Shown here: positions 30,638 to 42,094 of the stretch, in pieces
Layout of the letters: each line of letters starts with the position of its first letter
How positions within the stretch are numbered: position 1 is the stretch's first letter
Assembly (NCBI GenBank): GCA_043822065.1
Contig: JBDRCC010000007.1
Span: forward strand, 62,001-126,000
Direction: 5' to 3'
Source of the DNA: JBDRCC01 sp043822065 [NCBI: archaeon]
GTDB taxonomy: Archaea; Undinarchaeota; CAZHTU01
Length of the DNA: 64,000 bases
The notes under the pieces: generated by a model
The model's input: only the letters and a program-made list of their open reading frames with translations
What the model was told of the DNA's origin: nothing
Databases searched by the model: none
Translations under genes and position numbers: made by a program

Positions 30638-31066
30638 TTGCCAGCTAAAAAGAAAGCCGCAAAGCCGAAAAAAGCGGCCGCAAAGCCAAAGAAAAAGGTT
30701 GCAAAATCTGCACCAAAGCCAAAGGTAGCACCACTTGCGCCGAGGCCAGCCTTCGCAAGGCCAGCTCAGGTCCAGGCGCCGGCAGCACCTGCAGGACCGC
30801 AGGCTCCAGCAAGCAAAGAGTATGTGGGGGACGTCGCAGCATATTTCGGCGGCGTGAGCGTCATAGCGATTGACCTGACCGCCGGCCTGAATGTAGGCGA
30901 CGAGATATGGGTTGAACGCGGGGACAACCTGAGCTTTAGGCAGAGGGTTGACTCAATGCAGATAGACAGGGTGCCAGTCCAATCCGCGACGAAAGGCCAG
31001 TCCGTCGGCATAAAAGTTAGCCAGAAAGCAGCCCCTGGAAACAAGGTTTACAGAATCACTAAGTGA
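30638..31066 (+). CDS. Basic-tailed translation-factor domain II protein
   Basis: 142 residues. The first 58 are a K/A/P-rich basic tail, the rest a beta-barrel of the EF-Tu/IF2 domain II type (VGDVAAYFGGVSVIAIDLTAGLNVGDEIWV, then AVGIKV-like and GNKVYRI). It begins with TTG; Shine-Dalgarno GGGGTG lies at 30624-30629 and the ATG just before it (30623) hits a stop after two codons. No GTPase domain is present. Probably an RNA- or ribosome-binding protein; role inferred. Confidence 0.6.
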   Translation: MPAKKKAAKPKKAAAKPKKKVAKSAPKPKVAPLAPRPAFARPAQVQAPAAPAGPQAPASKEYVGDVAAYFGGVSVIAIDLTAGLNVGDEIWVERGDNLSFRQRVDSMQIDRVPVQSATKGQSVGIKVSQKAAPGNKVYRITK

Positions 31067-31760
31067 CCTTAATGCCCATGCTCTGCAGGGCGGTTTTTGC
31101 CTTGCCGGCTGCAAGGCCCTTGTGAAGCCTTACGGCAGTTTTTAGCTCATGCACGTTTTCGTGCAGCGAAAGGTGCTCTAGCACGTAAAGCGAGATTCCA
31201 AGCATCTCCTCCGCGGTGAATATGCCGTGGTGGGTCTCTTTCGCCCCGAACAGCTTGGTTTCGATTTTGCCGATGAGCCCGGTGCCGTCTTTAAGCTTGT
31301 CTGCGAGCAGCTCCTCTGCGATTTCTTTCCTGACGTCCCACATTACATAGAACAGGTACATCCCGGCAGTTATCCTGGCAGCCTTCATCATGGACTCCGG
31401 CGCCGCAAGGAACTCCTCTAGAACATATATGTCTCCAATATCGCTGCCTGAAATCTTTTCTTTTGGTATTATAAGTATCTCGACCGGTCGTCTGGAGCTG
31501 GTCATCATCCACTCCTTGAATGCCTCCCACGAGCTGCGCCTGCCGCCGATTTTCATCTTTTTGAGGTAGAGGCTGAGCCTGAGCTGGTCCATCATGTTCC
31601 GGCTCTTGATAATTTTTATCTCCCCCCTGTTGGGGTAGTACTGCTCCAGTCGCACTCTCTCTGCTTTGCCAGTCTTGGGGTTAGTAAGTGTGAGGGGGTG
31701 CGCATATGCCTCCCTAAGCACGTCGCAAATCTCTGAGTAAAGCTCGTTTGCAGTTTCCAT
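31059..31760 (-). CDS. Hypothetical protein, 233 aa
   Basis: Soluble, mostly helical, no recognised motif. Ends QSMGIKVT and overlaps the convergent preceding gene by eight bases. Contains a ISLYVLEHLSLHENVHELKTAVRLH region at the C-terminus. It is divergent from infB across 80 bp. Confidence 0.55.
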   Translation of the reverse strand: METANELYSEICDVLREAYAHPLTLTNPKTGKAERVRLEQYYPNRGEIKIIKSRNMMDQLRLSLYLKKMKIGGRRSSWEAFKEWMMTSSRRPVEILIIPKEKISGSDIGDIYVLEEFLAAPESMMKAARITAGMYLFYVMWDVRKEIAEELLADKLKDGTGLIGKIETKLFGAKETHHGIFTAEEMLGISLYVLEHLSLHENVHELKTAVRLHKGLAAGKAKTALQSMGIKVT

Positions 31761-35725: not shown

Positions 35726-36103
35726 ATGGTGAAGCTACTACTAGACACAAACTTTCTCATGGTGCCTTTCCAGTTCGGGGTGGACATCTATTCTGAGTTC
35801 GACAGGATACTCCACGAGCCGTATACCATGTTTACCATCACTGCGGTGGAAGACGAGCTGGTCCGGCTTTCAAAGACCAAGCCCGCAGCAGCAGCCGCGC
35901 TGAAATTAGCAAAACTTAAAAAGGTGCGCATTATTCAGAATCCAGCAGATTCTCCGCAAGGGACAGACCCAAAAATCCTGGCTGCCGCGGAGTCAGAGGG
36001 TGCGGCGGTATGCACCAATGACTCTGCCCTCCGGAGGCAGGCTCGGGTGAAGGGCCTGAGGGTCATAACCCTTCGGCAGATGTCGCATTTAGTGGAGGCA
36101 TAA
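35726..36103 (+). CDS. PIN domain ribonuclease (VapC9/Fcf1-like)
   Basis: 125 residues: LLLDTNFLM with the first acidic residue, E42-43 region (VEDELVRL), DPKILAAAE and TNDSALRR near residue 98, which together form the PIN metal site. In archaea this PIN protein is linked to aIF2-gamma and rRNA processing rather than to a toxin. There is no antitoxin beside it. Abuts both neighbours. Confidence 0.85.
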   Translation: MVKLLLDTNFLMVPFQFGVDIYSEFDRILHEPYTMFTITAVEDELVRLSKTKPAAAAALKLAKLKKVRIIQNPADSPQGTDPKILAAAESEGAAVCTNDSALRRQARVKGLRVITLRQMSHLVEA

Positions 36104-36621
36104 TGGCAAAATCACAGAAGAACCCTGAAAAATGGCCAGAATCCGTGGAGGTAGTCGTCACTATGCCTAAGGGCTCAAGGAACAGGTACTCTGTCCTTAA
36201 GTCTGCGGTCAAGGTCGAAAAGGTTTTCCCCCTCCCAAGCGTTGTCGAAACCGGGTTCATCTCCGGCACAGAGTCTGATGACGGAAACCCCTTAACAGCA
36301 TTTGTCCTGGTGGATGAGCCAACCTTCCCTGGCTGCATAATCTCTGCGAGGCCAGTCGGCGTTTTGAAGCTTGCAAAAAAGGACATGTACATTGACCTAA
36401 TCCTGCTGGTCCCCACTGCAGACCGGAGGTACGATTCGATCACGGAGCTGGAGGATGTCCAGGAGAGCGTAAAGAAGGACATTTCCAACTGGTTCCTTGG
36501 CGTCTCAAAAATGCTTGTTGCGCCGCTCGATACCGCGCCAGCCATCCAGGGCTGGGTGGGTTCGGCTCAAGCCAAAAACTCTATAAAGCATGCCGCGGAT
36601 TTATTCAAGCGACGTCATTAG
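36103..36621 (+). CDS. Family I pyrophosphatase-like protein, likely inactive
   Basis: 172 residues with the fold outline of soluble family I inorganic pyrophosphatase: VETGFI, ESDDGNPLTAFVLV, GCIISARPVGVLKL, RYDSITELEDV. Compared with E. coli PPase the DGDPxD box is DGNPLT (D67 to N, D70 to T), and the E20, K29, E31, R43 and Y55 positions appear changed to V/T, R, S, K and F. Catalysis by the usual metal-ion mechanism seems unlikely. Placed beside rpoE' and PIN. Confidence 0.7.
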   Translation: MAKSQKNPEKWPESVEVVVTMPKGSRNRYSVLKSAVKVEKVFPLPSVVETGFISGTESDDGNPLTAFVLVDEPTFPGCIISARPVGVLKLAKKDMYIDLILLVPTADRRYDSITELEDVQESVKKDISNWFLGVSKMLVAPLDTAPAIQGWVGSAQAKNSIKHAADLFKRRH

Positions 36622-36629
36622 GTGTTACT

Positions 36630-37289
36630 ATGTATGAACTAGTTACAGTACAGGATAACGTAAGGGTTCCGCCAGACAAGTTTGGCACCGACCTGAAGGG
36701 CACGATAATAAGCGTGCTGAAGCGCCAGTACGAGGGCTACCTTAACAAGGACCTCGGGCTCGTCGTCAGCGTGGCTGACGTTGACACAATCGGCGAGGGC
36801 GAGATACGCCCTGGCGACGGAAGCGCATACTATGACACAGTCTTCAAGATACTCACATTCAAGCCGGAGATGAACGAGCTCGTCCTCGGGAAAGTGATAG
36901 AAATCGTCGAGTTCGGCGCGTTCGTAACATTGGGTGCGATTGACGGCCTCATTCACGTTTCACAGGTCACGGACGACTTCCTTTCATATGACGACAAGGG
37001 CAGGCGCCTCGTCGGCAAGGAGAGCAAGAAGTCAGTCAGCGAGGGGGACTTCCTCCGCGCGAGGATTGTCGCACTCTCAATGAAAAAGTCACAGAGCCAG
37101 AAAGTAGGGCTCACCATGCGCCAGAGCGGGCTTGGCAAGCTCCAGTGGATTGAGGAGGAGCGGAAGAAGGCGAGCAAGGAAAAGGCAGCGCCAGCCGAAA
37201 CGAAGGATAAGCCAAAAGACAAGGCAAAGGACAAGCCGAAGGAGAAGCCGAAAGAGAAGGCTAAAGACTCCCCAAAGGGGAAGAAATGA
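36630..37289 (+). CDS. rpoE1: DNA-directed RNA polymerase subunit E' (Rpb7)
   Basis: 219 residues. The first 80 residues form the Rpb7 tip (VRVPPDKFGTDLKGTIISVLKRQYEGYL) and residues 80-170 an S1/OB domain (VVEFGAFVTLGAIDGLIHVSQ pattern). The last 45 residues form a K/D/P/E-rich tail that archaeal RpoE' usually lacks. Works as the stalk with RpoF. Start ATG 36630, overlap with Spt4 four bases. Confidence 0.93.
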   Translation: MYELVTVQDNVRVPPDKFGTDLKGTIISVLKRQYEGYLNKDLGLVVSVADVDTIGEGEIRPGDGSAYYDTVFKILTFKPEMNELVLGKVIEIVEFGAFVTLGAIDGLIHVSQVTDDFLSYDDKGRRLVGKESKKSVSEGDFLRARIVALSMKKSQSQKVGLTMRQSGLGKLQWIEEERKKASKEKAAPAETKDKPKDKAKDKPKEKPKEKAKDSPKGKK

Positions 37290-37468
37290 TTAAGGCATGC
37301 AAGAACTGCCACGTGCTCACCGAAGAGTCAGTATGCCCAGTTTGCAAGTCGCAGGAGTTCAGCCCGAAGTGGAAGGGCTTCATCACAGTCATTGACGCCG
37401 ACAGGTCAGAGGCGGCAAAGCGCATGGGCGTTACAATGCCCGGCAAATATGCATTAAAGATTGGTTAA
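37286..37468 (+). CDS. spt4: Transcription elongation factor Spt4 (RpoE'')
   Basis: 60 residues with a zinc finger C-x2-C (CKNC) and CPVC and the KWKGFITVIDADRSEAAKRMGV segment. It partners Spt5/NusG as a polymerase processivity factor. Its start overlaps rpoE' by four bases, and S24e begins immediately after. Confidence 0.93.
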   Translation: MIKACKNCHVLTEESVCPVCKSQEFSPKWKGFITVIDADRSEAAKRMGVTMPGKYALKIG

Positions 37469-39217: not shown

Positions 39218-40066
39218 ATGGGTTACGCCCTTTATTTTGACAAGAGCGCCTGGAAAAATAACTGTGTTACAGTATATCCTGTCTGTAAGGACAAACAGTG
39301 TGACGCCCCTGCTGGCGAGCTCTGTAAGCTCTTTGCAAGCGAGGTAATTGATGGCGTGAGTATAGGGCAAATCAGTTACTTGACGTTTTTTGGCCCTGTA
39401 CAACCTGGTAAGTCAGAGCCGACGAGCATGACGTTTACCTGTCCAAAGTATTCTTCTGGCATCTCTTGCGCACATTTTCTTCAGCAGGAAGGGTGGGAAT
39501 GGTTTGCGAGACGGGCAGGCATAAGCCCCTTCGACTATAATCGCGGCGACCAAGGTGATGGCCGACCTACTGCGCCTTTCTATTGCAACAGCTTTGATTC
39601 TAATCATAAGCAGGAGATGAAAATCGCAGTAAACCCCCATTCCAATTTAGAGCATTACATCCTTGCGGGGTTTTGGCTGGCTAATCCAGCCCTGAAGCAG
39701 TACCTTGTGTCCAAGTATCACACCGAGGACCTAGAATTTTCCATGGTCGAGGAAACCTCGGCGGAGCTAACTGGGAAGTTTTTTGAGGATAACAGGCGTA
39801 AAGTAAAAAAGATTGCCAAGCTCCAGGGTGCCAGTGATGGCTCCAATAGATGCCCTGGAGTCCGTAATGTTGAAGACTACAAAGCAGAGATATACTCACA
39901 TGGTATTATCAACAACAAAGAAATTAATGCCTGTGGCTTCATGCTCTCTGAGCTGCCGCGGATGTCAGGCTGTTATGGCAAGGTTTATACTAATAACGTC
40001 GAAACCCGTTGCGGTGGGAATTACAAAACAAAATCTAAAATGCGGCTGATTTGCAGCAAAGCCTAA
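39218..40066 (+). CDS. Hypothetical protein, cysteine-rich, 282 aa
   Basis: 282 residues and about a dozen cysteines, with no signal peptide or membrane segment. Starts MGYALYFDKSAWKNNCVTVY. Base use is visibly richer in A+T than the surrounding genes. I recognise no family, and nothing around it suggests a role. Confidence 0.55.
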   Translation: MGYALYFDKSAWKNNCVTVYPVCKDKQCDAPAGELCKLFASEVIDGVSIGQISYLTFFGPVQPGKSEPTSMTFTCPKYSSGISCAHFLQQEGWEWFARRAGISPFDYNRGDQGDGRPTAPFYCNSFDSNHKQEMKIAVNPHSNLEHYILAGFWLANPALKQYLVSKYHTEDLEFSMVEETSAELTGKFFEDNRRKVKKIAKLQGASDGSNRCPGVRNVEDYKAEIYSHGIINNKEINACGFMLSELPRMSGCYGKVYTNNVETRCGGNYKTKSKMRLICSKA

Positions 40067-40123: not shown

Positions 40124-42094
40124 ATGGAATACTTTGCATACACACCGATTGCAGGGCTCCTCGCCATAGTCTTTGCGGGGTACCTGTCTTACATGGTTCT
40201 GAAAAAGGAGGAGGGCACTCAGAAGATGAGCGAGCTTTCCCATGCAATTCAGGAGGGCGCACTGGCTTACTTGACGCGGCAGTACAAAACACTGGCAGTC
40301 TTCATAGCAATTGTTGCAGTAATATTCGCGTATGCATTGTCGCCCATTGTCGCATTAGTATACCTTATAGGGACCCTTTGCTCAATCGCCGCAGGATTCA
40401 TAGGCATGTACGTCGCTACAAGGGCGAACACCAGGACGACAAACGCCGCGAGGACGAGCCTAAATTCCGCCCTCCAGATTGCATTCCGGGGCGGCTCTGT
40501 GATGGGAATGTCCGTCGTTGGGCTAAGCCTATTGGGGATTGGCGTGACCTTCTATGTCTTTAGGGACATACAGGTGGTCACCGGCTTCGCATTCGGTGCG
40601 AGCTCAATCGCACTTTTCGCCAGGGTCGGCGGGGGAATATTCACCAAAGCAGCTGACGTAGGTGCAGACCTCGTTGGCAAGATTGAGGCCCACATACCAG
40701 AGGACGATCCGAGGAATGCCGCAGTAATCGCAGACAATGTCGGCGACAACGTAGGCGACGTCGCAGGTATGGGCGCAGACCTGTTCGAATCATATTCCGG
40801 CTCAATAATCTCTGCTGTGGTGCTTGGCTCTACTGCAATGGTTATCGGGCAGTTCGGGGTAAACTCCGTTTTCTTCCCATTCTCGATAGCCATCATGGGC
40901 GTGCTTGCATCGATAGCTGGTGTCTTTGTAGTCCGGACAAAAGAGGGTGCAGACCCCCAGAAGGTTCTTAACAACGCAACATTCTCAAGTGCGATAATCC
41001 TGGCAATCGGCGCGTACTTCCTCTCCAGATACCTCCTTCACAGCATTAGCCCGTTTATCGCCGTGGTCGCAGGGCTTGTTGCGGGAGTAGTCATCGGCCT
41101 GCTTACCGAATACTACACGTCAGCGGACTACAAATATGTCAAGGCGATAGCCAAAGCCGCCGAAACCGGCGCTGGCACAAATGTCATTCAGGGAATCGCC
41201 GTCGGCATGCAGAGCACCGCGCTTCCTGTGCTCTCAATCTGCGCAGCTATCCTGCTGTCCTACCATGTCGCAGGAATATACGGCATTGCAATGGCCGCGG
41301 TCGGAATGCTTTCCATAACCGGGATTGTTGTTGCGGTCGACTCGTACGGCCCGATTGCAGACAACGCTGGCGGGATTGCAGAGATGGCCGGGCTCCCGAA
41401 GTCCGTCCGGGCAAGGACAGACAAGCTCGACGCACTTGGCAACACGACAGCCGCAATCTCAAAGGGATTTGCCATCGGCTCTGCCGCGCTTACCGCACTC
41501 GCGCTGTTCATAGCGTTCGCACAGACTGCAAACATCAGCGTGATAAGCGTGCTGGACCCGACCGTCCTTGTCGGAATGCTCATTGGAGGCATCCTGCCAT
41601 TCGTCTTCAGCTCAATGGCTATGAAGGCGGTGGGAAACGCCGCATTCGAGATAATCGAGGAGGTCAGGCGCCAGTTCAGAGAGATAAAAGGCCTGATGGA
41701 AGGAAAGACAAAGCCTGACTACGCCAGATGTGTTGACATATGCACAAAGTCCGCACTACGCGAGATGATTGCGCCCGGTGCGATGGCTGTTCTTGCCCCC
41801 CTTGCAATGGGCTTCCTCCTTGGCAAGGAGGCGCTCGGCGGCATGCTTGCCGGCGCTACAGTCACCGGCGTCATGCTAGCAATATTCATGGCAAACGCCG
41901 GCGGAGCCTGGGACAACGCCAAGAAGTACATCGAATCCGGGCACCTTGGCGGAAAGGGGACGCCAACACACGATGCCGCCATAGTCGGCGACACAGTCGG
42001 CGACCCGTTCAAGGACACAGCAGGGCCATCGCTGAACATCCTAATCAAGCTGATGGCTGTAATCGCCCTCCTGGCGGCGCCTCTGCTGGCTTAG
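40124..42094 (+). CDS. hppA: Membrane-bound pyrophosphatase, K+-dependent type
   Basis: 656 residues and about 16 membrane helices. Signature segments: [43 protein letters not shown] and the C-terminal [19 protein letters not shown]. At the K+ signature [16 protein letters not shown] (near residue 440) the key position is alanine, as in K+-dependent enzymes; K+-independent ones have lysine. It hydrolyses PPi to pump H+ or Na+; which ion cannot be read here with certainty. Confidence 0.95.

What the first reader, a model, noticed from the sequence alone, without database searches (positions are those of the whole stretch)
36103..36621. Soluble pyrophosphatase-like protein lacking the catalytic residues
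The fold signature of family I PPase is recognisable, but the DGDPxD box is DGNPLT and several other catalytic positions are changed. It remains in the place where archaea keep transcription genes, next to rpoE'. It is probably a pseudoenzyme that has taken another role, since the membrane PPase at 40124 can do PPi hydrolysis.
Basis: partly seen in the sequence, partly recalled or inferred. Interest (0 to 1): 0.65.

Follow-up and report, generated by a model that had tools for sequence, protein, structure and literature searches.

The report
Dead pyrophosphatase beside archaeal transcription genes
In this archaeon, the gene for a common housekeeping enzyme (soluble pyrophosphatase) has kept its protein shape and its place beside a gene of the transcription machinery but has lost nearly every residue needed for its reaction, so it probably now acts by binding something rather than by catalysis.

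Summary
Window 36103-36621 (+) encodes a 172-aa family I pyrophosphatase (PPase) fold (PF00719 E 8e-24; model pLDDT 87.9; VIA Z 24.1 to Thermococcus PPase). Of 15 catalytic positions 14 are changed; 100 of 102 relatives keep all 15. In 44 relatives from whole-genome search, 1 of 15 catalytic but 19 of 30 other near-invariant positions are kept. With no stop and 43% identity to the nearest relative, neutral decay fits poorly. So the fold seems selected and catalysis not.

Six of 44 PPase places examined lie beside rpoE' and spt4, five with all catalytic residues, so the position is probably inherited. The window's membrane PPase looks intact, and in 392 genomes membrane and soluble PPases tend to exclude each other, which fits replacement.

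Open: no genome is held for the window and no close relative was reachable, so a second soluble PPase, conservation of the dead form and its new role are untested; a tree does not confirm orthology. Best reading: a new pseudoenzyme variant of a well-known family.

The parts
36103..36621 (+). Family I PPase-fold protein with 14 of 15 catalytic positions changed (P0001, 172 aa)
36280..36297 (+). Remnant of the DGDPxD metal box, read as DGNPLT (residues 60-65)
35726..36103 (+). PIN_9-domain protein, overlapping the PPase-like start by one base
   Evidence: PF18477 71.1 bits; ORF coordinates
36630..37289 (+). rpoE' (Rpo7) RNA polymerase subunit, starts 8 nt after the PPase-like stop
   Evidence: NF006333 247.8 bits (cut-off 143), TIGR00448 229 bits (cut-off 124.2)
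37286..37468 (+). spt4
   Evidence: PF06093 55.2 bits
37461..37946 (+). ribosomal protein S24e (start codon unsure)
   Evidence: PF01282 62.4 bits
37946..38143 (+). ribosomal protein S27ae
   Evidence: PF01599 73.7 bits
34098..35312 (+). eIF2 gamma
   Evidence: PF09173 103.3 bits
35279..35725 (+). EamA-like membrane protein, between eIF2 gamma and PIN; in L082 eIF2 gamma and PIN adjoin directly (start codon unsure, overlaps eIF2 gamma)
   Evidence: PF00892 42.6 bits; L082 ORFs
40124..42094 (+). Membrane pyrophosphatase with the stretch [29 protein letters not shown]; the likely PPi hydrolase
   Evidence: PF03030 928.5 bits; NF001960 981.6 bits (cut-off 546); alignment to solved vacuolar membrane PPases

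Best explanation
The gene is the positional counterpart of a soluble family I PPase that some archaea keep between a PIN gene and rpoE'. In this lineage catalysis was lost: metal ligands, lysines and tyrosines of the active site are gone, leaving one Asp. The barrel was kept under selection, and PPi hydrolysis is done by the membrane PPase encoded 3.5 kb downstream. Shown here: predicted fold, residue loss, shared gene order, a complete membrane PPase gene, poor fit to neutral decay. Inferred: that it has no PPi hydrolysis, and that it now works by binding. The former pocket is rebuilt from Ser, Thr and Asn with R28, K40 and K92 and one acid (D60) instead of seven acids and five bases, so I think it most likely binds an anionic ligand (Pi, PPi, nucleotide or RNA backbone) without metals, or a protein partner made from the same transcript.
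For: Fold: PF00719 E 8.1e-24; model pLDDT 87.9, pTM 0.86; VIA Z 24.1, rmsd 2.0, 165 aligned, 30% identity to 3i98_E. Loss: 14 of 15 catalytic positions changed, 100 of 102 relatives with none. In 44 relatives found by whole-genome search, catalytic 1 of 15 kept against 19 of 30 other columns conserved in at least 90% (Fisher p 3e-4). One change alone, D117A in mouse PPA1, is reported to inactivate a PPase (PMC3633968, passages); I take D117 as E. coli D67 from memory, and it is N62 here. NCBIfam inorganic diphosphatase equivalog 64.8 bits, cut-off 200. Not neutral decay: drift of a relative's gene to 1.5 substitutions per site keeps on average 1.1 of 15 catalytic residues but gives 7.9 stops and 10% identity, and drift to 0.3 gives 52% identity but keeps 7.2 of 15 with a 1% chance of no stop; the window has no stop and 43% identity. 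Gene order eIF2gamma-PIN-PPase-rpoE'-spt4 in relatives. Membrane PPase complete. In 392 genomes both 38, membrane only 181, soluble only 87, neither 86. The six genomes with a linked soluble copy have no membrane PPase match.
Against: No close relative was reachable, so conservation of the dead form and dN/dS are not shown. In a tree without the catalytic columns it has the longest end branch (2.06), and a starred branch (95/90) shuts it out of the 24-row group that holds the rpoE'-linked copies; a clade with four of those copies is not rejected (p-AU 0.17) but not supported. At strictly invariant columns the contrast is weaker (1 of 12 against 7 of 14, p 0.036). The exclusion of PPase kinds is confounded by shared ancestry. 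The shift from acidic to basic (pI 8.6 against 4.05-6.22 in 111 relatives) also appears in other window proteins (eIF2gamma 8.94, RpoE' 9.26, PIN 9.16), while IF2 (6.11) and the membrane PPase (6.62) are not basic, so it may reflect the organism and not a new ligand.
Confidence: 0.65

Rival explanations
1. A recently relaxed gene on its way out. Once the membrane PPase took over, the soluble copy lost its active site and survives only because loss is recent or because it sits inside a tight cluster.
For: Anti-correlation of the two PPases. A linked copy in G006 already carries D70N beside a second PPase with all catalytic residues (L083, L115). A PPase gene in a genome with a membrane PPase is split over two frames (L117).
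Against: No stop or frameshift in 172 codons, GC by codon position like its neighbours, 19 of 30 other near-invariant columns kept, confident fold. Simulated drift that removes the catalytic set brings about 8 stops.
Confidence: 0.2
2. A new enzyme on the PPase barrel: the pocket was rebuilt for another substrate and reaction.
For: The former catalytic positions are now mostly polar (T20, S30, S46, T50, N62, T65, S135, T144) with R28, K40, K92, and the change is concentrated there compared with other conserved columns.
Against: No relative with the same new residues was found, so no conserved new motif can be named; metal ligands are nearly gone.
Confidence: 0.08
3. Still a PPase, with migrated metal ligands.
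For: D60, E39 (at E. coli D42), D94 and D98 lie at or near old site columns by alignment.
Against: Of Asp 65, 67, 70, 97, 102 only D65 stays; all four lysines (K29 is Arg) and all three tyrosines of the set are replaced; D98 aligns with column 103. The membrane PPase removes the need. Distances in the model were not measured.
Confidence: 0.04
4. Assembly or sequencing artefact.
For: The window comes from an unnamed source without a held genome.
Against: Fourteen separate in-frame replacements, an intact frame, codon-position GC like its neighbours, and a single in-frame hit in a six-frame profile search.
Confidence: 0.02

Closest known systems
Family I soluble inorganic pyrophosphatase (PF00719; e.g. 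Thermococcus thioreducens 3i98, Pyrococcus furiosus 1twl, M. tuberculosis 4z70)
   Same: Fold over the full length (Z 24.1 to 3i98_E), about 30% identity, and the gene order seen with some other PPase copies
   Different: 14 of 15 catalytic residues replaced; fails the inorganic diphosphatase equivalog cut-off (64.8 against 200)
   Same: Beside rpoE' and spt4 in 6 of 6; PIN match in 5 of 6 and eIF2 gamma match in 5 of 6 within the short flanks; the G002 group has the highest identity, 40-43%
   Different: Five of six have all 15 catalytic residues; L083 has D70N only. Those genomes have no membrane PPase match.
   Same: Weak PF00719 relatives with an altered active site, in genomes that also have a membrane PPase
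   Different: Shorter; 4 of 4 keep D65, D70, D97, D102, K104, E20 and Y55 but not D67, E31 or K142. The window protein is full-length with nearly the opposite pattern.
Pseudoenzymes as a class (review PMC10211241, passages only)
   Same: Loses conserved catalytic motifs on a kept fold
   Different: The word pyrophosphatase does not occur in that review's main text; no natural family I PPase pseudoenzyme was recognised in the listings

Membership tests
Family I PPase superfamily (PF00719) | Profile match over curated cut-off along the full length | tested here: met
   84.6 bits against 23.5, profile 1-151 of 153; listed full-length matches in 392 genomes score 170-205 bits
Family I PPase superfamily (PF00719) | Barrel fold of solved PPases | tested here: met
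   pLDDT 87.9; VIA Z 24.1, rmsd 2.0, 165 aligned to 3i98_E; the 50 entries shown are PPases by title, or by molecule name for 3ld3 and 3fq3. Predicted, not solved.
Soluble inorganic pyrophosphatase (enzyme) | Acidic active-site residues D65, D67, D70, D97, D102, E20, E31 (list recalled) | tested here: not met
   1 of 7 kept
Soluble inorganic pyrophosphatase (enzyme) | Active-site K29, R43, Y51, Y55, K104, Y141, K142, K148 (list recalled) | tested here: not met
   0 of 8 identical; R28 and K40 keep the charge of K29 and R43
Soluble inorganic pyrophosphatase (enzyme) | NCBIfam inorganic diphosphatase equivalog over cut-off | tested here: not met
   NF002317 64.8 bits against 200
Soluble inorganic pyrophosphatase (enzyme) | PPi hydrolysis | not testable with these tools
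   needs an assay
Soluble inorganic pyrophosphatase (enzyme) | Hexamer | not testable with these tools
   single-chain prediction only
Pseudoenzyme under selection | Dead form conserved among close relatives | not tested
   no close relatives reachable
Pseudoenzyme under selection | Fold residues kept while catalytic residues are lost | tested here: met
   19 of 30 against 1 of 15, p 3e-4; weaker at strict invariance, 7 of 14 against 1 of 12, p 0.036; neutral simulation

The most novel reading that the evidence does not exclude
A lineage of archaea has turned its rpoE'-linked pyrophosphatase into a fixed non-catalytic partner or sensor of the transcription machinery: a PPase barrel that binds PPi, Pi or RNA near RNA polymerase without hydrolysing it, while a membrane PPase clears PPi.
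Probability: 0.12. Interest if true: 0.72.

Novelty: new variant of a known kind. Interest (0 to 1): 0.42.

Why it matters
Family I PPase is a strongly conserved housekeeping enzyme: 100 of 102 relatives here keep every catalytic residue. A copy that has lost nearly all of them yet kept its fold and its place suggests that the barrel can be freed for another use, perhaps once a membrane PPase takes over PPi removal. It also gives an annotation warning: by PF00719 alone this gene would be called a PPase.

Tried and rejected
Viral-contig scans with the PPase-like protein, RpoE' and eIF2gamma gave no relatives. PHROGs gave no family. Rfam gave only tRNAs, so no rRNA to place the organism; its phylum is unknown, and that it is an archaeon rests on its gene set.

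Sequence orthology to the linked copies: the tree did not support it, so orthology rests on gene order. A basic shift as a sign of nucleic-acid binding: several neighbours are also basic. A frameshift or different register hiding an intact site: rejected. Rows dropped before counts: 9 identical rows, L102 (same place as L081), L131 (identical to L101), L117 (fragment) and L118-L121 (short proteins). The tree used 36 rows, without L085. The first residue table stopped with a script error and was rerun. The catalytic residue list and roles are recalled; one search for them found nothing useful. A recalled linkage of ppa and rpoE' in Thermococcus comes from no call.

Papers: PMC11210485, PMC3149612, PMC8407392, PMC3633968, PMC10211241 and PMC6760234 were seen as found passages; the rest only as search listings with abstract starts. 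Two papers that hold 'inactive pyrophosphatase' concern an engineered D117A mutant of PPA1, not a natural pseudoenzyme. Searches listed no paper. A look at NURF-38, a PPase recalled as part of a chromatin complex, led nowhere.

Full report
What is there. The ORF at 36103-36621 + encodes 172 aa. It overlaps the upstream PIN gene by one base and ends 8 nt before rpoE'. It matches PF00719 over nearly the whole profile (84.6 bits, cut-off 23.5). Of the 40 solved-structure sequences listed at E up to 10, 38 are PPases (one, 3i4q, by its title) and two are weak IMP dehydrogenase matches at E 0.19 and 0.23. A six-frame profile search of the window finds no other family I PPase.

Catalytic residues. 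With E. coli numbering (list recalled; one search lists mutant or variant structures by title at six of the positions), 14 of 15 are changed and only D65 (D60 here) is kept. Of 102 distinct relatives, 100 differ at no position and two at one. Many of these relatives came from a peptide-pattern scan and are mostly actinobacterial, which could flatter other columns, so I repeated the count on 44 PPases found by whole-genome search from an archaeal centre: catalytic 1 of 15 kept; other columns conserved in at least 90% of rows, 19 of 30 kept (Fisher p 3e-4). At 95% the figures are 1 of 15 and 15 of 25 (p 9e-4), and at strict invariance 1 of 12 and 7 of 14 (p 0.036). Exceptions among the 44 are L083 (D70N) and L122 (E20T, K148P). 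A review names Asp117 of yeast PPase as the residue that holds the attacking water (PMC11210485, passages), and D117A inactivates mouse PPA1 (PMC3633968, passages). I take D117 as E. coli D67 from memory; the window has Asn there.

Fold. The AlphaFold model (24 sequences in the alignment) has mean pLDDT 87.9 and pTM 0.86. Foldseek gives 144 PDB chains at E up to 0.001; the best VIA match is Thermococcus PPase 3i98_E, Z 24.1, rmsd 2.0, 165 aligned, 30% identity.

Family filing. It is a PF00719 member by sequence and predicted fold. It fails the NCBIfam inorganic diphosphatase equivalog (64.8 bits against 200), and its 84.6 bits to PF00719 compare with 170-205 for the listed full-length copies. 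It should not be called an active PPase.

Neighbourhood. IF2, S6e, eIF2gamma, EamA, PIN, PPase-like, rpoE', spt4, S24e and S27ae follow on one strand. Of 44 PPase places with about 1.1 kb or more on each side, six are beside rpoE' and spt4 (L082-L086, L090). L082 shows eIF2gamma, PIN, PPase, rpoE', spt4 in the window's order, without the EamA gene. Five of the six have all catalytic residues. So the place is probably inherited and says little about a transcription role. The G002 group (five genomes) has a second, unlinked PPase with all catalytic residues (L112-L116).

Selection. Drifting the L082 gene without selection until about one catalytic residue of 15 is left (1.5 substitutions per site) gives on average 7.9 stops and 10% identity; at 0.3 substitutions identity is 52%, but 7.2 of 15 catalytic residues remain and 1% of runs have no stop (2000 runs each). 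The window protein has no stop and 43% identity to L082 outside the catalytic columns. L082 is a stand-in for the unknown ancestor. The fold was therefore probably kept by selection for much of the time since catalysis was lost. This is an argument from one sequence; without close relatives dN/dS cannot be measured.

Who hydrolyses PPi. The membrane PPase at 40124-42094 is complete by profile (PF03030 928.5 bits, positions 1-644 of 645; NF001960 981.6 against 546) and aligns to solved vacuolar membrane PPases through the EDDPRN...DNVGDNVGD stretch. Ion specificity is not settled: both a sodium and a proton model pass. Among 392 genomes given as relatives of G001, 219 have a membrane PPase over cut-off and 148 have a PF00719 match, 125 of them strong (one of these, G053, split over two frames) and 23 weak. 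Cross-count with the strong matches: both 38, membrane only 181, soluble only 87, neither 86, Fisher p 6e-12. The genomes are related, so this p is not a clean test; it suggests that one kind often stands in for the other. None of the eight genomes G001-G007 and G034 has a membrane PPase match.

Tree. Without the catalytic columns the window protein has the longest end branch (2.06). A starred branch (95/90) leaves it outside the 24 rows that include the linked copies; the tool warns that such branches may wrongly shut out long rows. A clade with L082, L083, L084 and L086 is not rejected (p-AU 0.17).

Mechanism. The catalytic positions change from seven acids and five bases to one acid (D60) and three bases (R28, K40, K92) among Ser, Thr, Asn and hydrophobic residues. 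I infer metal-free anion binding or a protein contact. The whole protein is basic (pI 8.6 against 4.05-6.22 in 111 relatives), but several neighbours are basic too, so this is weak.

Novelty. Searches for a pseudo-PPase in print showed none for family I that I recognised; two hits are engineered mutants. A search for the PPase-rpoE'-spt4 linkage listed no paper. The library is open-licence PMC only. I file it as a new variant of a known kind.

Noticed in passing
All 23 of 23 genomes whose only PF00719 match is weak also have a membrane PPase; that those 23 matches are the same short family is inferred from their partial coverage.
   Followed up: partly
L083 1501-1983: The rpoE'-linked PPase of G006 has D70N (box DNDPLN) while the genome's second PPase (L115) has all catalytic residues, perhaps an early step of the same loss.
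   Followed up: partly
L117 2277-2725: A PPase gene split over two frames in a genome (G053) that has a membrane PPase; decay or sequencing error.
   Followed up: no
L082-L086 and L112-L116: Five related genomes (G002, G003, G005-G007) carry two full-length family I PPases, one rpoE'-linked and one not.
   Followed up: partly
window 31059-31760 - and 39218-40066 +: Two ORFs of 233 and 282 aa with no Pfam family at E up to 1.
   Followed up: no
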